This document shows, piece after piece, positions 49,634-59,531 of a stretch of DNA of 64,000 bases. Position 1 is the stretch's first letter. Each line of letters starts with the position of its first letter. Under the pieces are notes generated by a model. The model saw only the letters and a program-made list of their open reading frames with translations, made no database searches and was not told the DNA's origin. The stretch is taken from the NCBI RefSeq assembly GCF_033842475.1, contig NZ_JAWXYB010000018.1, forward strand, positions 620,001 through 684,000, in the 5' to 3' direction. Source of the stretch: Acidiphilium acidophilum (lineage in GTDB: Bacteria > Pseudomonadota > Alphaproteobacteria > Acetobacterales > Acetobacteraceae). Both the position numbers and the translations under genes were made by a program.

Positions 49634-50302
49634 TCAGAACTGAAAATCGCGGGTGGCGAGGATTTGGTGGAGGGCGAGTTGCTGGTCCCAGGCGGGCGGG
49701 GTGCGCGGTTTGGATGGGAAGGGTGAGGGGCGGGGTGCGGCGCGGGGGCTGCGGCGCCGGGGCTGGTTGATGGGTGGAGTGGGGTCGGTCAGGTTTGGAT
49801 CGGGCGGGGCTGGGTTTGGGGTGCGCGGGCGTTTCGGGCGGCGCAGGAGGGGTGGGGGCTGGATGCCGAGCATGTGGCAGAGCGGGCGGAACAGGCGGCC
49901 GGCGGCGCGGTTGCGGGCGATCAGGGCGAGGAGTTCGGGGTCGTCGAGCAGGGATTGGATGCCGATGCGACCATTCACGGCGGCGTTGCCCTGGGTGATG
50001 GTGGGCGGGACGAGGCGGAGGAGCCACGCGAAATGATAGGGCAGGCGCAAGGGCGCGGGCTCGCGTTTCGGCGTGGGGCGGGGTTTGCGTGAGGGGGTTT
50101 CGGCGGGTTGGGCGGGGTTGGCGCGGTCGCGGCTGACGATGGCGGCGAAGCGCTCGATGATGCGGGTGAGGCGGGTGGAGATAAGGGCGAGCAGGAGCTG
50201 GTTCAGGCCGGTCTGAAAACCGCGCGTGCAGACATCGTTGCGGAGACCGCGGATGATGGCGGCGAAACGGTCGGTCAGGGAAAGGGTGGGGGTTTCTGTC
50301 AC
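49634..50302 (-). CDS. Unrecognised Pro/Arg-rich protein
   Basis: The 222-residue protein has an N-terminal helical segment (LTDRFAAIIRGLRNDVCTRG, LLLALISTRLTRIIERFAAIV), a central PYHFAWLLRLVPPTITQGNAAVNGRIGIQSLLDDPELLALI that looks like a folded domain, and two long Pro/Arg-rich stretches. I know no function; it looks like a lineage-restricted protein of Acetobacteraceae. GC-rich codon use matches the surroundings, so it is likely native. Confidence 0.65.
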   Translation of the reverse strand: MTETPTLSLTDRFAAIIRGLRNDVCTRGFQTGLNQLLLALISTRLTRIIERFAAIVSRDRANPAQPAETPSRKPRPTPKREPAPLRLPYHFAWLLRLVPPTITQGNAAVNGRIGIQSLLDDPELLALIARNRAAGRLFRPLCHMLGIQPPPLLRRPKRPRTPNPAPPDPNLTDPTPPINQPRRRSPRAAPRPSPFPSKPRTPPAWDQQLALHQILATRDFQF

Positions 50303-50622: not shown

Positions 50623-50814
50623 TTACGGCTGATATCCTGCTGCGCTGTCAGGTTTCCGGACGGACGACATCACGGTGCCGATGGTTATCAATGCTGCGCT
50701 GATGATGAAGCCGACGCCGATGATATGGTAGAAGACCCCGGCTCGCGAGACCGTCATGCCCGATAACAGGATCAGAGCGGCACTATTTATATAGGGGTAC
50801 GCTTTCTTCATCAT
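50623..50814 (-). CDS. Small hydrophobic protein
   Basis: This 63-residue product starts MMKKAYPYINSAALILLSGM and has a second hydrophobic stretch FYHIIGVGFIISAALITIGT, so two membrane helices are likely. No family is recognised. An AGGTGT weak ribosome site precedes the double ATG. It sits between a decayed antitoxin and the mobile region, and composition is less GC-rich than the core genes; it may itself be a relic. Confidence 0.45.
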   Translation of the reverse strand: MMKKAYPYINSAALILLSGMTVSRAGVFYHIIGVGFIISAALITIGTVMSSVRKPDSAAGYQP

Positions 50815-50912
50815 ACACCTGCCTGAGATGACCGGGTGTCTCGATCGGATCACGATGTGAGAAACACCACGTTTCGTGCAATTTGTCATCCTCCGATCAG
50901 GACGGAGCCTGA

Positions 50913-51120
50913 TCCGGCGGCCAAGGCGTTGCGGTATTGGCGCTGGGGCGGAAGGGCGTGTTTCTGGCCGGGTCGGGCGTCGTGGCGCTGGTTCTTTCGG
51001 CGCTGATCCATTGGCGGGCGCCATGTTCGCTCGCGCCGTTGATGGTGCTGATTTGTTTCATGGCACCTCAGGCGATCGCGCTCCCGGCGGTGCTGGGCAC
51101 GGTTTGGCTACGGGCTATCC
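50913..51120 (+). pseudogene. Fragment of a polytopic transporter (MFS-like)
   Basis: An open stretch with no proper start encodes LALGRKGVFLAGSGVVALVL, then two further hydrophobic helices ending ALPAVLGTVWLRAIP. It resembles two to three helices of an MFS drug transporter of the Bcr/CflA type, with the GRK turn between helices. The GC-rich sequence ends abruptly at about 51120, where the AT-rich AIPR remnant begins, suggesting that the mobile region replaced or truncated a resident gene. The family call is weak. Confidence 0.35.
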
Positions 51121-51494
51121 CGATGAGTAGTATGAGTCAGCGAAATTCTATCCTTCACTGCGTTTTTAATTATCTCTTTAAATTTTGGCCCTTTCGCCAT
51201 CTGATCGGTATTCCCATTCTTGAAAAAGAGTTCCTTCACGCACGAAATTGCTGAAATTATGCTCTCATCTGAAATTTTACCCTTCAACGAGGCCACTTTC
51301 TGATGTGTGAGTGCTATTGATTGGGCCTCGTAGGCAATTAACCAGTATAAAACATAAAATCTAATATTGTTCTTGTCTCTCGCCGTTAATCCATTACTTT
51401 CTCGTAAGGCAGTCTCCACCCTTCTAATTGCATTGGCGGCGACTACATACGCATCCAAATCGAAATCACCTGAGAACAGGGATTTATAAACATC
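51108..51494 (-). pseudogene. AIPR gene, C-terminal fragment
   Basis: Third piece of the AIPR gene. From the IS256 duplication the frame reads DVYKSLFSGDFDLDAYVVAA, NAIRRVETALRES, NGLTARDKNNIRFYVLYWL and ends at a TAG (51108-51110). The helical, AT-rich sequence continues the middle fragment in frame once the IS is removed. The last residues (HRDSP) run into GC-rich flank, so the natural C-terminus may have been lost at the island edge. Confidence 0.8.
51487..51494. repeat. Target duplication, left side of IS256 element
   Basis: TAAACATC occurs here and again at 52848-52855; the next base G is also shared, so an 8- or 9-base duplication is possible. Both fit the family. Confidence 0.85.
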
Positions 51495-51542
51495 GGTGGT
51501 GTAACCTGACGTCTGGAAATTCATTTTGGGTTGGGAGTTGGT

Positions 51543-51572
51543 GCCCTTGCCGGGGCATGCCCCGGCAAGGGC
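51543..51572. repeat. Perfect 30-base palindrome inside the IS256 left end
   Basis: The sequence from GCCCTTGCCGGGGCA to its exact complement TGCCCCGGCAAGGGC is a perfect dyad without loop, placed between the left terminal repeat and the transposase ATG at 51625. An RNA copy would fold into a very stable hairpin. Confidence 0.85.
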
Positions 51573-51624
51573 TGTTCATTCTGGTATTCCATGCAGTTGT
51601 TCACACCAACATGGAGACCGATGA

Positions 51625-52806
51625 ATGGACGCCAAAAAGGATACGATTATCGAGGCACTTTTGGAACATCTGATCGAAAACGGCGCAGGCGATATCGCCA
51701 CGGTATTTGCCAGGACCTTCGAACTCGCCATGCAGATCGAGCGCGAACGCTTCCTCCACGCCAGTCACTACGAGCGCAACCCCGATCGTCAGGGTTACGC
51801 CAATGGCTACAAGCCCAAGCGGATCGATACCCCGGCCGGGTCGATCACCGTCGATGTCCCCAAAACCGCCGGTCACGTGGGCGAACCCTTCTACCCACAG
51901 TCCCTCGAACGCGGCCGACGCTCGGTCCGCGCCGTCATGGTCGCCGTCGCCGAAATGTACATCAAAGGCGTCTCCACCCGCGACGTCGAGGCCGTCATGC
52001 GCGAATTCGGCATCGAAAGCCTCTCCTCCGCTCAGGTCAGCCGCGCCAGCAAGCTGCTCGATGACGAACTCGCCGCCTGGCGCACCCGACCCCTCGCCGA
52101 GATCCGCTACCTCATCCTCGACGCCAGATATGAAAAAATGCGCGATAATGGCGTCGTCCGCGATGCCGCCGTGCTCTCGGCCATCGGCATCGGACCCGAT
52201 GAACGCCGCCGTGTCCTCGGCGTCTCGGTCGCCCTTTCCGAGGCCGAAGTCCATTGGCGTGCCTTCCTCGAAAGCCTCCATCAGCGTGGCCTGCGAGGCG
52301 TCGAATTCATCGTCTCCGATGACCATGCCGGATTGCACGCCGCACGCCGCGCCGTCTTCGGCGCCGCACACTGGCAACGATGCCAGTTCCACCTCGCCCA
52401 AAACGCCATCCACCACGCCCCCAACCACGCCATCCGCAAACGCATCGGCGCAGAACTCCGGACCGTCTGGAACGCAAATTCCCTCGCCGCTGCCCAGATC
52501 GCTCTCACAACCCTCGTCAATGCCTATCGCGACACCGCACCAAAGCTCGCCGATTGGCTCGAACGAAATATCCCCGAAGGCCTCACCGTCTTCACACTGC
52601 CAGAACCCCACCAGCGCCGGCTTCGCACTTCCAACCCCATGGAACGCGGCATCCAGCAGGAACTCAAACGCCGCACCACCAAAATCAGGGTCTTCCCCAA
52701 CGAAGCCTCCCTCGAACGCCTCGTCAGCGCCGTCCTCGTCGAAATCGATGAAAAATGGGCCGCCGACACCAAGGGCTACATCAAGTGGGACTACCAGGAT
52801 GCCTGA
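51625..52806 (+). CDS. IS256-family (Mutator-like) transposase
   Basis: This 393-residue DDE transposase has an N-terminal DNA-binding region (TFELAMQIERERFLHASHYE, GYANGYKPKRIDTPAGSI). Catalytic residues fit DARYEKMRDNG (first Asp), FIVSDDHAGL (second Asp) and the Glu near NPMERGIQQEL. CQFHLAQNA matches the 'C...H' signature of the family. The length is usual and no frameshift is seen. It lies in a complete element. Confidence 0.95.
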   Translation: MDAKKDTIIEALLEHLIENGAGDIATVFARTFELAMQIERERFLHASHYERNPDRQGYANGYKPKRIDTPAGSITVDVPKTAGHVGEPFYPQSLERGRRSVRAVMVAVAEMYIKGVSTRDVEAVMREFGIESLSSAQVSRASKLLDDELAAWRTRPLAEIRYLILDARYEKMRDNGVVRDAAVLSAIGIGPDERRRVLGVSVALSEAEVHWRAFLESLHQRGLRGVEFIVSDDHAGLHAARRAVFGAAHWQRCQFHLAQNAIHHAPNHAIRKRIGAELRTVWNANSLAAAQIALTTLVNAYRDTAPKLADWLERNIPEGLTVFTLPEPHQRRLRTSNPMERGIQQELKRRTTKIRVFPNEASLERLVSAVLVEIDEKWAADTKGYIKWDYQDA

Positions 52807-52846
52807 CCCCCGCTCGCCCTATTTTCCAGACATCAGGTTGCTCAAT

Positions 52847-53572
52847 CTAAACATCGTTATCTTTGATGAGAGATGACGGTCTGGCACGGGCGTTGTCTGG
52901 CTCTCCTCTAAAAAGTGTCATCATTGCCTGCGCCAAGAGATTGATACTAACAATTTTGTTTACGGGCTTACCCTCATTCTTGTAGAAATTCTTTCTTCTA
53001 TCGTAAAATAATTCATTCATCTTGAGAACGTGCTCAATATCCCTCTGAACCTTGTCAGTTGCCCGAAGCGAGGCAAGGAGCACAGGATTCTGGTTGTTTG
53101 TAGCTTTAATTATCCGATCCCGTATTTCTTCATCTTCCGACGCAACAACTTTAACCATTACTGTCCTTTGGTCATCCTCATGATGTTCCTGAAAATAAAG
53201 AGAGATTTGAGAGCTCGTTTGAAGTCCATTCACAATTTGCGGATTTTCTACAGTGATAATTGAACCAGACGAATTTGCTCGCGAAGCTATTATTGTCACG
53301 CCATTATTAAACCACCAAAAATCATCTTCCTTATTCCCTTTAAGGGTCTCTTCAATTTCATCATTTACCTCAGTTGATCCTTGATAATCTCGAACATTGG
53401 CCTCGAAAAGATCCGCCCGAACTGCGTTTCCACCGCCGCACAAAAATTTATAAAAATCAGATAGTTTGACTAATGAAATATATCCGCTCGTCCCATTTAG
53501 AGATTGCACGAATTTCATATTAAAGGATTGAGTTGGCCGCGTTTGTGCAAGTGTTAAAAGATCTCGTGCACC
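52847..53572 (-). pseudogene. AIPR gene, middle fragment with the signature motif
   Basis: Second piece of the AIPR gene, running from the IS66 side (WGARDLLTLAQTRPTQSFNM) to the IS256 side (SSLIKDNDV, then a stop made by the IS end). It carries the conserved core NVRDYQG, FWWFNNGVTIIASRA, ENPQIVNGLQTSSQISLYF and EIRDRIIKATNNQNPV. From an internal ATG (53518) it could still be translated as 223 residues, but without both ends. Confidence 0.88.
52848..52855. repeat. Target duplication, right side of IS256 element
   Basis: TAAACATC matches the copy at 51487-51494. Removing the element and one copy restores the AIPR frame. Confidence 0.85.
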
Positions 53573-53580
53573 CCAGAAAA
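53573..53580. repeat. Target duplication, left side of IS66 element
   Basis: CCAGAAAA directly precedes the left terminal repeat and is repeated at 55245-55252. Eight bases is the usual IS66 target size. Confidence 0.9.
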
Positions 53581-55244
53581 GTAACCGTTCACACCCCCCG
53601 GGTCAGACCGCTACCTGGGCAGGGATTGTGGGCAGCAGATTGTTAGCTCGTGCGGCGGTGATGAGGGCGCAGGCATAGGCCCATGGATCAGTGCCACGCT
53701 TGCGGCAGGTGTCAATGACGCTGAGCGCGGCGGCATAGAACCGGCTCCCTTCATCGGATCGCGTGCCAAAGCTGATGCGCCTCGAGATCACCGCGTGGCG
53801 GAGCGCACGTTCGGCATCATTGTTGGTGGGCGGTAAATCCCGATCGGCGACGAAGGCGACCACTGCGTCCCAGTCATTGAGGATTTCACCTGCCAGCCCG
53901 CGAACTTTCGCATCGATCTCATGGCGATTGCATTGACAGTTCCATTTGATGCTCGCGGTCAGGCGCTTGATGGCGGCGGGGTCGTCGCCGTCATGCACGC
54001 GCTCGATCAGGCGGCGCAGATCGCGGACCAGATCGCTGCCGAAGCCTGATCCCGCGCCGTAATGCCCCTCTGCCAGCGCGCGGGCCTTACGGATCAGGTG
54101 CGCCAGACATCTCTGGCGGCGTGGATGATCGCGATAGGCACCGTAACCGTCGGTGACGAGCCAACCCAGAAAGGCCTCGCCGATCAGCGCGGCCAATTCG
54201 CAGTGCTTGCGGCTGCCGATCCGATAGACGATCGTGGTTGCCGTCACCGCAACCCAGAGCCACAGCAGACTTGCCTTTTGATACCACGGGGTTTCGTCGA
54301 GATGGACGATGTCAGCCGCACGCACATCTTCGATCAATTGCTCGACCACGGGTTCGCTCGCCAGACCGAATTCGTGAATGCAGCGTTCGATGGTGGCAAT
54401 CCCGAGCTCAACGCCCAGCCAGTCAGCCAGGAATTCAGCGATCTTGACGCGCGAGAGGCGGAAACGCAGCGACAGCGCCGCGATGAAGGTGGCGAGCATC
54501 GGGCCAACCAGGCAGCGCTCGCTCATCAGCAGGTCGCGCCGGCGCCCCTCGACATGTGAGCACAGTCCGGTTGCGGGGCGTGCGATGGTCTCGTGGCCAC
54601 AGTCGCAGCGTATCGCCAGATAGCAATGTTTCGTGGCTGCGACATGAAGGCTCATGTCGCCGCGGGTGAGTTCAAAGCTCAGATGAGCGCTGACTTGGCG
54701 GCTTTGCGAGACGGTGGAAGATCCGAAAACTGCACGGCATGCGTCGCACGCTGTCGGCGCATGCAGGAGTTCACCGCTGACTATAATCGGCAACCGGCGC
54801 CAAAACCCTTTCGTCCCTGGCCGTTTGCCGGCCGGCTTGGGTCCAGGGTTGCCGGCGGAAGCGTTGCCGCCCGGCGCGGAACCACCACCCCCATCGGTTT
54901 TGTCGTCCCGGTCGGAGCGCTCAGAACTTTGCCCGCTCTTGGTGTTACGCCGGTAGGGATTGTCGCTGGAAGGCGGACGGGAACTGGTTGTTGAATCCTC
55001 GCCGGCATGGTTTGCCAGCGCTCGCGCCAATTCATGTAAATCCCAGGTCAGTTCTTCAAGCTCGACGCGCGACATCGCAGATAAATCAGTACGTTTAATG
55101 TCTTTCAGGCCGGGGATTCTCTGACGGGGCATCAGAATCGTAGAGTCCGGTTCGGGTGGAAAAGCAAGCCCAGCCTTTCGACATTTTACCGGCCGTTGGC
55201 TAACGCTTCATTCGAGGCAAGAAAGGGGGGGTGTGAATGGTTAC
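53581..55244 (-). mobile_element. Short IS66-family insertion sequence (single-gene type)
   Basis: This 1664-base element has terminal inverted repeats GTAACCGTTCACACCCCCC (left) and GTAACCATTCACACCCCCC (right, opposite strand), 18 of 19 bases identical, with a CCAGAAAA duplication outside. It holds only the large transposase gene and lacks tnpA and tnpB, as in the ISBst12-like subgroup of IS66. It interrupts the AIPR gene. Confidence 0.93.
53603..55132 (-). CDS. IS66-family transposase (TnpC)
   Basis: This 509-residue protein has the IS66 layout: an N-terminal helical leucine-rich region (SRVELEELTWDLHELARALA), the Ser/Pro-rich TTSSRPPSSDNPYRR, a zinc-binding-like region (HAPTACDACRAVFG and IRCDCGHE), then the DDE domain with VHLDETPW, VTDGYGAYRDH and the Glu in NNDAERALRHAVISR. 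The C-terminus ends in the usual TCRKRGTDPWAYACALI. It is intact. Confidence 0.95.
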   Translation of the reverse strand: MPRQRIPGLKDIKRTDLSAMSRVELEELTWDLHELARALANHAGEDSTTSSRPPSSDNPYRRNTKSGQSSERSDRDDKTDGGGGSAPGGNASAGNPGPKPAGKRPGTKGFWRRLPIIVSGELLHAPTACDACRAVFGSSTVSQSRQVSAHLSFELTRGDMSLHVAATKHCYLAIRCDCGHETIARPATGLCSHVEGRRRDLLMSERCLVGPMLATFIAALSLRFRLSRVKIAEFLADWLGVELGIATIERCIHEFGLASEPVVEQLIEDVRAADIVHLDETPWYQKASLLWLWVAVTATTIVYRIGSRKHCELAALIGEAFLGWLVTDGYGAYRDHPRRQRCLAHLIRKARALAEGHYGAGSGFGSDLVRDLRRLIERVHDGDDPAAIKRLTASIKWNCQCNRHEIDAKVRGLAGEILNDWDAVVAFVADRDLPPTNNDAERALRHAVISRRISFGTRSDEGSRFYAAALSVIDTCRKRGTDPWAYACALITAARANNLLPTIPAQVAV

Positions 55245-55841
55245 CCAGAAAAGTACTTCGACTACTGCCTCCTCGAACAACGATCGCGCAACCTGCTTGA
55301 GTTCATCGGCTTTTAACCGAAGGTTCTGGTGGACATCCCCTGTAGATCGTTTAGCTGCGTAAATGTATTTGATTTTGAGGGTCGGAAATTTGGCGGCAAG
55401 CCGTCGATAGGTCTTTCTAAAAATATCCGCTTTTGCTTTCACTTCACTATTATATTGAGGCAAATTACCGTATTCTTCTGATAAAGATAGCAAGTGACGT
55501 GAGGCAGAAATAAGATTGTTTAACGCAGATTCAGAAAATCCGTTAGCAGACTTACTTTGTATAATTATAAGTTCGACATCGGGTGCCTTCTTGGGGATTT
55601 GAAATGAAATCTCTTCGTCAACCAATTCACCATTCATGAACGTGTAGATGGCGTCAACGCCACCGTCGTGTTCCCCGTCAACAATACCGTTTTCAATTTC
55701 TTCGTATGAAAGTTCAAATTCCTTCACCGCCTGCTCAGCGGTAAAAATTTCAAAGTATTCGTTCGGAGATTTTTCGGGTGCGATCTCTGATCGCTTTGCT
55801 TCAAGCACGTCGTTGAGAATAATTTCGGCATTTCCCGACAT
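55200..55841 (-). pseudogene. AIPR gene, N-terminal fragment
   Basis: First piece of the AIPR gene, beginning at an ATG (55841) with GGAGG upstream. It reads SGNAEIILNDVLEAKRSEIA, then DGEHDGGVDAIYTFMNGELV (a pattern seen in this family and in restriction-like domains) and VELIIIQSKSANGFSESAL, with acidic D/E and Q-x-K residues reminiscent of a nuclease active site. After VVEVLFW (55245) the frame enters the IS66 end and stops at 55200. AT-rich codon use contrasts with the neighbours. Confidence 0.85.
55245..55252. repeat. Target duplication, right side of IS66 element
   Basis: CCAGAAAA matches the copy at 53573-53580. Removing the element and one copy restores the AIPR frame. Confidence 0.9.
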
Positions 55842-56018
55842 GAAATATAAGCCTCCAATTTTTCACCCACCTATCAGATATTGCATTTAGAAGGCAAGAT
55901 GATCATCAGCTTATCAGGTCATGACTCCCTAATTTTCGGTCAACGTCCCTATCCCCTTCCATCGGTATCAAACGGAAAGCAGGGCTGCTGCCTGCACATG
56001 GCCGTTAGAAAGTTTTTT

Positions 56019-56042
56019 GCTTCTTTTTTACAAAAAAGAAGC
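56019..56042. repeat. A/T-rich inverted repeat, copy 4
   Basis: This perfect dyad GCTTCTTTTTT-AC-AAAAAAGAAGC is identical to copy 2, 18 bases past the end of the leftward propeller gene, and preceded by AAAGTTTT. It marks the return from the mobile region to core-like sequence. Confidence 0.75.
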
Positions 56043-56060
56043 GCTTGCTTCCTTTCCTCC

Positions 56061-57392
56061 TTACTTCGCCCCATCGATCTTCACCGTATAGATCGTGCCG
56101 TTGCGGCCGGCGGCGAATAGGTGGTTGTTGATGATGACGGGGCCGTCCGGGGAGATTGAGGTGGCGGCGAGGGGGATGGTTTTTTCGGTGGCGCCGGTGG
56201 TTTCGTTGAGGATGTGGATGTCGCCGTGGATGTCGGCGACGTAGACTTTGTGGTTCAGGATGGCGGGGGCGCCTTTGACTCCGGTGCCGAGGTGGTTTTG
56301 CCAGAGTTTTCGCCCGGATTTCAGGCTGTAGGCGTAGACGCTCATGGTGTAGGGGCTGCCGACGAAGGCTTTGCCGTCGGCGATGGTGGGGGTTCCCGAG
56401 GTGTCGCCGGTTTGTTGGGGGCCGCCGCCGAGGAGGTTTTTCCAGAGCAAGATGCCCATGGTGTTGAAGCCGTAGATGAACTGGAATCGCGGCTGGTTGG
56501 TGATGTGGTAGGTGGCGCGTTCCTCGCGGGTGAGTTGGCCTGCGGATTTGACGGCGGTGATGACGATGCGGGTTTTGCCTGCGGAATCCGGGCCGACGGC
56601 GGGGGGGATATCGGTGAAGGAGCCGTAATCCATGAACATCCAGGCGATGGAGCGGTGGGCGAGGTTGATGGCGACGAGGCTGTTGTCGGCGCCGACATAG
56701 ATGCGGTTGCCGTCGAGGGCGGGGGAGGACATGCTGTCCCATTCCGGGAGGCGGAGGTGCCAGTCGAGCAGGCCGGAGCGGGCGTCGAGCGCGTCGAAGT
56801 GGCCATCGCCGGTGGCGACGTAGATCATGCCGTTGTCGATGACGGGGGTGGGCATGACTTCGCCGGCGGTGGGGAAATTCCAGATGATGGCGCCGGTGCG
56901 GGCGGAGAGGGCGAGGACGCCGCTGTGGCCGGTGCCACGGACATCCCGCGCGTCGAAGTATTTGTTGCCGTAGCCGGCGTAGAGGATGCCGTTGGCGTAG
57001 ACGATGTCGGACATCACCTGGTTGGGGGTTTTGGTTTGCCAGAAGCGTTTGCCGGTGGCGACGGTGAAGGCGGTGATGCTGCCTTTGGTGCGGCCGGTGA
57101 TGTTGCCGATATAGAGGCGGCCGTGGACGATGACCGGGTTCGAGGCGATCGAGCCGCCGACCGGGAAGCTGGGGGCGGTGGTTGTGGATGTGGGGTGGGG
57201 GTTGGCGAAGACGGCGTTGTGGGTGGGGCCGCCGCGATATTGGGTCCAGGCTTTCGGGCCGTCGATGATGCCGGAGCGGGCGGGGTAGGCGTGGGCGCAG
57301 GGTGGGACGGCGAGTGCGAGGGCGATTGGGACGGTCAGGCGGAACAGCCCCTGTGCCTTGTGGCGGCGCAGGGGGGGTGGGGTGGTGGTCAC
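56061..57392 (-). CDS. Exported PQQ-like beta-propeller protein (second)
   Basis: The 443-residue protein has a signal peptide (LFRLTVPIALALAVPPCAHA). The mature part has propeller blades such as ITAFTVATGKRFWQT, LALSARTGAIIWNF, DALDARSGLLDWHL, YAYSLKSGRKLWQN and HILNETTGATEKTI. YRGGPTHNAVF near the mature start is typical of PQQ-like propeller proteins. Catalytic residues of quinoprotein alcohol dehydrogenases are not evident, so it is probably a binding or scaffold protein. Its neighbour is an exported truncated haemoglobin, 112 bases upstream in the same direction. Confidence 0.85.
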   Translation of the reverse strand: MTTTPPPLRRHKAQGLFRLTVPIALALAVPPCAHAYPARSGIIDGPKAWTQYRGGPTHNAVFANPHPTSTTTAPSFPVGGSIASNPVIVHGRLYIGNITGRTKGSITAFTVATGKRFWQTKTPNQVMSDIVYANGILYAGYGNKYFDARDVRGTGHSGVLALSARTGAIIWNFPTAGEVMPTPVIDNGMIYVATGDGHFDALDARSGLLDWHLRLPEWDSMSSPALDGNRIYVGADNSLVAINLAHRSIAWMFMDYGSFTDIPPAVGPDSAGKTRIVITAVKSAGQLTREERATYHITNQPRFQFIYGFNTMGILLWKNLLGGGPQQTGDTSGTPTIADGKAFVGSPYTMSVYAYSLKSGRKLWQNHLGTGVKGAPAILNHKVYVADIHGDIHILNETTGATEKTIPLAATSISPDGPVIINNHLFAAGRNGTIYTVKIDGAK

Positions 57393-58511: not shown

Positions 58512-59384
58512 ATGAGTGTGCGGATGGAGAGCGGGCGGTTGCCGTCGCCGGTGCTGGTGTTGATGTTCATGACGGTGCTGTGGGGCGGGACGTTTCTGGT
58601 CACGCGGACGGCGCTGCATTTCATCGGGCCTTATGCGTTTGTCGGGCTGCGGTTCGGGGTGGCGGCGGTGGTGGTGGCGCTGGTGGTGCGGCCGCATCCG
58701 GCGGGGTTTCAGCGGCGGGAGCTGATCGGCGGGGCGGTGGTCGGGCTGGTGCTGTATTTCGGCTACGGGTTGCAGGCGGTGGGGCTTAAGACGGTGGCGA
58801 GCGGGGAGTCGGCGTTTCTGACCGCGCTTTATGTGCCGATGGTGCCGTTGCTGGAGTTTGTTGTGTTTCGGCGGCGTCCGGGCGGTGTGGCGCTGGCGGG
58901 GGTGGTGCTTGCGTTTGTCGGGCTGGTGCTGGTTTCGGGGGTTTCGCTCGGGCATGTGACGATCGGGCCGGGGCAGTGGCTGACGCTGGGCGGAGCGTTT
59001 GCGGCGGCGGTGGAGATCGTGCTGATCAGCCGGTCGTCGCGGTTGACCGATCCGCGGCGGATTGCGCTGGTGCAATTGGTGACGGTGGCGGTGCTGTCGC
59101 TCGGGACCGAGGCGGTGCGGGGCGGGGCGATGGTGAGTTTCGCGTGGTTTCCGGTGCTGGCGGTGCTGGGGATGGGGCTGGTGACGGCGTTCATCATGGT
59201 GGCGCAGAACTGGGCGCAGCGGAGTGTGCCGGCCAACCGGGCCACTTTGATCTATGCGCTGGAGCCGGTGTGGGCCGGGGTGATCGGGGCGTCGTTCGGG
59301 GAGGTGTTCGGGGTGGGGCAGGTGGTTGGCGGGGCGATGATCATCGGCAGCGTGGTGCTGAGCCAGTGGCGGGGGCGGGAGTAG
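58512..59384 (+). CDS. EamA family (DMT superfamily) transporter
   Basis: The 290-residue protein has ten predicted membrane helices in two EamA repeats. Repeat one has TVLWGGTFLVTRTALHFIGP and FVGLRFGVAAVVVALVV; AVGLKTVASGESAFLTALYVP is the conserved end of the half. The second half ends with ANRATLIYALEPVWAGVIGA and FGVGQVVGGAMIIGSVVLS. Substrates of this group are amino acids, purines or metabolites, unknown here. The ATG at 58512 (MSVRMESGR) is preferred to an upstream Arg-rich extension; MESGR at 58524 is another option. Confidence 0.9.
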   Translation: MSVRMESGRLPSPVLVLMFMTVLWGGTFLVTRTALHFIGPYAFVGLRFGVAAVVVALVVRPHPAGFQRRELIGGAVVGLVLYFGYGLQAVGLKTVASGESAFLTALYVPMVPLLEFVVFRRRPGGVALAGVVLAFVGLVLVSGVSLGHVTIGPGQWLTLGGAFAAAVEIVLISRSSRLTDPRRIALVQLVTVAVLSLGTEAVRGGAMVSFAWFPVLAVLGMGLVTAFIMVAQNWAQRSVPANRATLIYALEPVWAGVIGASFGEVFGVGQVVGGAMIIGSVVLSQWRGRE

Positions 59385-59389
59385 GGAAG

Positions 59390-59415
59390 GCTTCTTTTTT
59401 TGCAAAAAAAGAAGC
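59390..59415. repeat. A/T-rich inverted repeat, copy 5
   Basis: This perfect 12-base dyad GCTTCTTTTTTT-GC-AAAAAAAGAAGC begins 6 bases after the transporter stop. Confidence 0.75.
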
Positions 59416-59483
59416 AAAAAAACTCTGATTTCGTTTGGTCCGTGACCCTCGTGCGCCCGTGCATCAGATTACAGAAGTTTTTT

Positions 59484-59506
59484 GCTTCTTTTTTTCAAAA
59501 AAGAAG
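59484..59506. repeat. A/T-rich inverted repeat, copy 6
   Basis: CTTCTTTTTT (59485-59494) pairs with AAAAAAGAAG (59497-59506), preceded by AGTTTTTTG. It lies 26 bases beyond the end of the leftward dehydrogenase gene and faces copy 5, so a pair of copies fills the space between convergent genes. Confidence 0.75.
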
Positions 59507-59531
59507 AACTTCCTTAACTATATCCCGGTAT

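What the first reader, a model, noticed from the sequence alone, without database searches (positions are those of the whole stretch)
51108..55841. One AIPR phage-defence gene split into three by IS256 and IS66 insertions, exactly reconstructable
Seen directly: IS66 ends (18/19 identical, 1664 bases) with CCAGAAAA duplications and IS256 ends with TAAACATC duplications sit inside an AT-rich leftward gene. Excising each IS plus one duplication restores a continuous 566-codon frame whose middle carries the AIPR hallmark (NVRDYQG, FWWFNNGVT, PQIVNGLQTS). Two independent hits in one defence gene, both leaving the frame otherwise intact, suggest recent insertions and possibly selection against the gene.
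Basis: partly seen in the sequence, partly recalled or inferred. Interest (0 to 1): 0.8.

Follow-up and report, generated by a model that had tools for sequence, protein, structure and literature searches.

The report
Phage-defence gene broken by two transposons

Summary
An IS256-family element (51495-52847) and an IS66-family element (53581-55244), each with inverted ends and exact 8-bp target duplications, interrupt one leftward gene between 55841 and 51108. Searched apart, they match consecutive parts of the AbiU profile, 1-187, 215-424 and 424-535 of 537, and tile an intact 565-aa Asticcacaulis homologue. The middle piece is AIPR, PF10592, 1.9e-43.

The family is thus AbiU (AbiU1/AIPR). 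Its N-terminal domain keeps DGG-D and K in 17 of 17 sequences and Q in 16 of 17, which suggests a PD-(D/E)XK nuclease; PDB fold searches did not confirm it.

'Selection against the gene' is not needed: the genome holds 43 full copies of this IS256 and 7 of this IS66, and so close a pair arises in about 5-10% of uniform simulations. An intact AIPR gene persists on another contig. No intact or empty site was found in relatives, so the history is inferred. Ordinary IS inactivation; low interest.

The parts
55253..55841 (-). AbiU piece 1: start codon and N-terminal domain (196 full codons) with the DGGVD ... ELIIIQSK signature; as an ORF it runs to 55200 with a tail read from the IS66 end (213 aa)
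   Evidence: AbiU profile 1-187/537, 3.1e-51; 58% identical to Asticcacaulis homologue; conserved residues
52856..53580 (-). AbiU piece 2: AIPR core (NVRDYQG, FWWFNNGVT, PQIVNGLQTS); the listed ORF is 52847-53518, stop formed at the IS256 junction
   Evidence: PF10592 1.9e-43; AbiU profile 215-424/537, 3.2e-100; 62% identity
51108..51494 (-). AbiU piece 3: C-terminal domain and natural stop; as an ORF it starts inside the IS256 end (51524)
   Evidence: AbiU profile 424-535/537, 4.2e-17; 29% identity
51495..52847 (+). IS256-family insertion sequence, 1353 bp, transposase 51625-52806 (+)
   Evidence: PF00872 6.6e-92; ends 20/26; 43 full copies in the genome
51487..51494 (.). target duplication TAAACATC, left copy
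52848..52855 (.). target duplication TAAACATC, right copy
53581..55244 (-). IS66-family insertion sequence, 1664 bp, one transposase gene 53603-55132 (-)
   Evidence: PF03050 1.1e-29; ends 18/19; 7 full copies in the genome
53573..53580 (.). target duplication CCAGAAAA, left copy
55245..55252 (.). target duplication CCAGAAAA, right copy

Best explanation
An AT-rich, horizontally acquired, solitary abiU gene (AbiU1/AIPR abortive-infection protein, about 566 aa) was inactivated by two separate recent transpositions, one of a highly multiplied IS256-family element and one of an IS66-family element. Shown: the elements, duplications, register, family and copy numbers. Inferred: that the gene once worked here, that it is now non-functional, and that both hits are by-products of an IS expansion landing in dispensable foreign DNA. 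How the intact protein probably works (inferred): an N-terminal PD-(D/E)XK-like nuclease domain coupled to the AIPR core, acting on phage nucleic acid or its expression after infection. Insertion 1 (IS66) separates the nuclease-like domain from the AIPR core and insertion 2 (IS256) removes the C-terminal domain, so no single product keeps the whole chain.
For: Ends and duplications; register; three pieces in order on one profile and one intact homologue, with one residue column at the first junction uncovered because its codon straddles it, and two residues (DV) doubled by the duplication at the second; AIPR hit; 43 and 7 full IS copies, all listed as 100% identical, counting the window's own; exact 8-bp duplications at 20 of 28 testable IS256 copies among the 30 distinct copies examined of 43, and 6 of 7 IS66 copies; GC of the pieces 0.43, 0.41, 0.41 against 0.653 for the window; AbiU relatives on plasmids (120 records) and in viral contigs; in the same-species genome G060 no close AbiU (best 26%).
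Against: No intact or empty allele of this locus was found, so the order and age of events are inferred. Open frames alone do not prove former function. The nuclease reading rests on a motif and a predicted alpha/beta fold; PDB fold searches gave no hit at E <= 0.001, profile search of PDB sequences gave nothing better than 0.13, and Pfam knows no domain there. A published review (PMC3506569, passages) instead puts an N-terminal HEPN domain in AIPR proteins.
Confidence: 0.88

Rival explanations
1. The gene was costly (autoimmunity, or a barrier to plasmids or prophages) and the insertions were selected.
For: Two different elements hit one 1.7-kb gene. IS insertion into cas genes under selection is published (PMC10359306, abstract and one passage seen).
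Against: A close IS66/IS256 pair occurs by chance in about 5-10% of uniform runs at 725 bp and 12-22% at 1701 bp; IS copies are clustered: 5 of 10 full or partial IS66 copies lie within 7 kb of an IS256 start. One insertion would have sufficed. Another AIPR gene is intact in the same genome.
Confidence: 0.1
2. Reversible silencing: precise excision of the elements could restore the gene in some cells.
For: Both elements are complete with exact duplications and the pieces are otherwise open.
Against: Two independent precise excisions would be needed; no excised copy is in the assembly (one search shows only this broken locus and the different C1 gene). That IS256 can excise precisely is recalled; my search gave two listings, neither on bacteria.
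Confidence: 0.03
3. The three ORFs are still made and work as a split protein.
For: Each piece is an open frame of 213, 223 and 138 aa.
Against: Pieces 1-3 carry tails or starts taken from IS DNA or an internal ATG; no separate-gene arrangement was seen in the 13 related loci whose ORFs were listed.
Confidence: 0.03
4. The gene was already dead before the IS elements came (for example unexpressed or with damaging substitutions).
For: The C-terminal piece is only 29% identical to the best homologue; the neighbourhood is a synteny break.
Against: No stop or frameshift in 566 codons; the motif residues conserved in relatives are kept in piece 1; the AbiU profile also finds piece 3 (4.2e-17).
Confidence: 0.08

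Closest known systems
AbiU (PADLOC PDLC02357; lactococcal AbiU1/AIPR)
   Same: All three pieces match it in order and nearly end to end; the intact relatives match at 1.5e-193 and 2.4e-153.
   Different: Here broken. Lactococcal AbiU consists of abiU1 and abiU2 (PMC3985639, passage); the three neighbouring ORFs scanned had no HEPN/AbiU2 hit.
AIPR family PF10592
   Same: Middle piece 149.7 bits, cut-off 25.
   Different: The model does not cover the N-terminal domain.
MzaE (AIPR protein of the MZA system)
   Same: Weak match of the AIPR core (PADLOC 3.2e-06, NCBIfam 34 bits).
   Different: Far under the curated cut-off of 1050 bits.
IS inactivation of CRISPR-cas genes (PMC10359306)
   Same: Natural IS insertions disable a defence gene.
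   Different: There shown experimentally under selection; here a static pattern in an Abi gene. I saw the abstract and one passage.

Membership tests
AbiU/AIPR protein family | AIPR domain PF10592 above gathering score | tested here: met
   149.7 vs 25 bits, piece 2
AbiU/AIPR protein family | full-length AbiU profile | tested here: met
   three pieces cover 1-187, 215-424, 424-535 of 537
AbiU/AIPR protein family | one continuous ORF | tested here: not met
   three pieces in the window; one 560-590-aa ORF in 12 of 13 related loci examined. So: a broken member, not a working gene
Two-gene AbiU system of Lactococcus | abiU2 partner | tested here: not met
   no Pfam hit of this kind in the neighbouring ORFs 49634-50302, 50623-51024, 56061-57392; therefore not filed as the complete two-gene system
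AbiU/AIPR protein family | phage resistance | not testable with these tools
   needs an experiment
PD-(D/E)XK nuclease (N-terminal domain) | D ... (E/Q)-x-K on adjacent strands | tested here: met
   D59 G60 G61 D63 K97 in 17 of 17, Q95 in 16 of 17; strands 64-69 and 88-97 in the model, pLDDT 88.1
PD-(D/E)XK nuclease (N-terminal domain) | fold match to a known member | tested here: inconclusive
   no PDB hit at E <= 0.001; MspJI at rank 45, E 1.5, TM 0.34; one viral hit, 1.4e-05, to an uncharacterised protein
IS256 family | Mutator transposase, inverted ends, 8-bp duplication | tested here: met
IS66 family | IS66 transposase, inverted ends, 8-bp duplication | tested here: met
   the only long ORF read as an IS66 gene is the transposase, so no tnpA/tnpB pair was seen; that such single-gene members form a subgroup is recalled

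The most novel reading that the evidence does not exclude
The double insertion is a heritable but reversible off-state of an AbiU defence gene, with two actively moving elements that leave exact duplications, so that rare excisions would bring the defence back in part of the population under phage attack.
Probability: 0.03. Interest if true: 0.5.

Novelty: new member of a known kind. Interest (0 to 1): 0.15.

Why it matters
It is a clean, datable example of a defence gene lost to IS elements in an IS-rich genome, and it corrects annotation: three apparent genes are one broken abiU. A side point of more use is that the AbiU N-terminal domain carries an invariant restriction-endonuclease-like signature and an alpha/beta predicted fold, which does not look like the all-helical HEPN domain (HEPN's helical nature is recalled) that one review assigns to AIPR proteins (PMC3506569, passages).

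Tried and rejected
Tried without gain: identifying the organism by plasmid similarity (only distant IS matches); full-length fold of the Asticcacaulis homologue (pLDDT 74.2, pTM 0.47) and its PDB search, no hit at E <= 0.001; PDB by sequence; reading the original AbiU paper (not held); promoter and terminator scan (4 promoter-like and 5 terminator-like sites, no more than in shuffles); NCBI record of the Asticcacaulis contig (not in the collections). Rejected: 'selection against the gene' as the needed explanation. The first simulation used 3.0 Mb for contig C18, whose true length is 3,639,652; one search repeats it and the figures used here come. Rows left out: 33 rows fell to 30 distinct IS256 copies because three rows repeat copies seen in overlapping loci, and two copies at contig ends could not be tested for a duplication. 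IS256 counts come from a search that scored 40 of 202 first-look candidates, so 43 may be a lower bound. G060, the same-species genome, shows no match to this IS256, but it is 83% complete in 580 contigs, repeats are easily lost in such assemblies, and the tool itself warns that an empty answer without a control shows nothing.

Full report
What is there. Between 51108 and 55841 on the minus strand lie three pieces of one gene, parted by two complete insertion sequences. The IS256-type element is 51495-52847 (1353 bp) with TAAACATC on both sides; the IS66-type element is 53581-55244 (1664 bp) with CCAGAAAA on both sides. Their transposases score 6.6e-92 (PF00872) and 1.1e-29 (PF03050). The pieces are in register by arithmetic: 1701 nt without the elements and one copy of each duplication. 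I left them apart.

What the gene is. The middle piece is AIPR (PF10592, 1.9e-43). The first and last have no Pfam hit, but all three match the PADLOC AbiU profile in order: 1-187 (3.1e-51), 215-424 (3.2e-100), 424-535 (4.2e-17) of 537. The nearest intact relative found is a 565-aa protein of Asticcacaulis solisilvae, 58, 62 and 29% identical to pieces 1, 2 and 3. One residue column at the first junction is uncovered because its codon straddles the junction, and two residues are doubled at the second by the target duplication. In 12 of the 13 related loci whose ORFs I listed the gene is one ORF of 560-590 aa; Acetobacter persici has a short one of 426 aa.

Where relatives occur. 120 of 72,556 plasmid records match the Asticcacaulis protein, 34 over at least 80% of it; 17 of 50,697 phage records match, 1 over at least 80%; an alignment-based scan of viral contigs gave 17 loci. 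In L114 and L115 the gene sits among phage tail and baseplate genes (my reading of the ORFs). In the host's own kin it is rare: 7 of 59 other relatives have any match to the middle piece, at 26-37% identity, and 7 of 288 other genomes of the class match the Asticcacaulis protein at E <= 1e-20. The same-species genome G060 has only a 26% match. The pieces have 0.41-0.43 GC in a window of 0.653. Together this points to horizontal acquisition.

Why it broke. The genome holds 43 full copies of this IS256 and 7 full plus 3 partial copies of this IS66, all listed at 100% identity. Of the 30 distinct IS256 copies examined, 28 could be tested and 20 have exact 8-bp duplications; 6 of 7 IS66 copies do. 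The AbiU insertions have the most AT-rich flanks of the copies examined: 0.433, lowest of 30, and 0.411, lowest of 7. Uniform placement gives an IS66/IS256 pair at most 725 bp apart in 5% (C18 only, 19 and 7 copies) to 10% (whole genome, 43 and 7) of runs, and at most 1701 bp apart in 12 to 22%. Real placement is clustered (5 of 10 full or partial IS66 copies within 7 kb of an IS256 start), so chance is likelier still. An intact AIPR gene (596 aa) lies on contig C1 beside ORFs with SNF2 helicase, N6/N4 methylase and ResIII domains. Selection is therefore possible but not needed.

What could not be shown. In all six relatives searched with the 17-kb region the left flank (to about 49.7 kb) and right flank (from about 58.4 kb) match different contigs, or in G008 places about 1.5 Mb apart on one contig; the listing of that call was cut. 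So no empty or uninterrupted site was available, and the locus lies in an accessory or rearranged stretch.

How the intact protein may work. In 17 of 17 sequences, the window's included, the N-terminal domain keeps D59, G60, G61, D63 and K97, with Q95 in 16 of 17. The model of the window's own N-terminal piece is confident (pLDDT 88.1, pTM 0.86) and alpha/beta, with the motif at strands 64-69 and 88-97 followed by a helix. That is the layout of PD-(D/E)XK nucleases (family knowledge). Against it: PDB fold searches found nothing at E <= 0.001, MspJI appearing only at rank 45 with E 1.5. Passages seen in PMC3506569 ascribe an N-terminal HEPN domain to AIPR proteins; PMC3710099 (passages) lists AbiU2, not AbiU1, among HEPN families. 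I take a nuclease domain coupled to the AIPR core as most likely for the intact protein (inferred). The IS66 insertion separates the two, and the IS256 insertion removes the C-terminal part.

Verdict. Observation confirmed; interpretation partly supported; a broken new member of a known family; low interest.

Noticed in passing
genome contig C1 (181 kb), L129:1630-10733 (-): Four co-directional ORFs of 962, 596, 568 and 898 aa with SNF2/helicase, AIPR, N6/N4 DNA methylase and ResIII domains: an apparently intact defence operon with a second AIPR protein.
   Followed up: partly
window 59383-59515 and 56010-56050; whole genome: A dispersed palindromic AT-rich repeat. TTTTTTGCTTCTTTTTT occurs 145 times (74 + 71) in this genome against 0 for the reversed pattern, often as minus/plus pairs about 73 bp apart; similar stretches recur in genus members G003, G007, G060. 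It may be a bidirectional terminator or a small mobile repeat.
   Followed up: partly
window 51543-51572: A perfect 30-base palindrome near the left end of the IS256 element, before its transposase gene; it might shield the transposase from outside transcription.
   Followed up: no
window about 49.7-58.4 kb: Synteny break: flanks conserved in six relatives lie on different contigs or far apart there. The PQQ-repeat protein 56061-57392 has no close match in the 12 other genus genomes (best 31-35%).
   Followed up: partly
L055:1554-2834 (Acetobacter persici): Another AbiU relative whose ORF stops early at 426 aa, so decay of this gene may recur.
   Followed up: no
C18:805399-805446: A 47-base IS66 right end abuts a full IS256 copy without a duplication: IS256 next to or inside IS66 elsewhere in the genome.
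   Followed up: no
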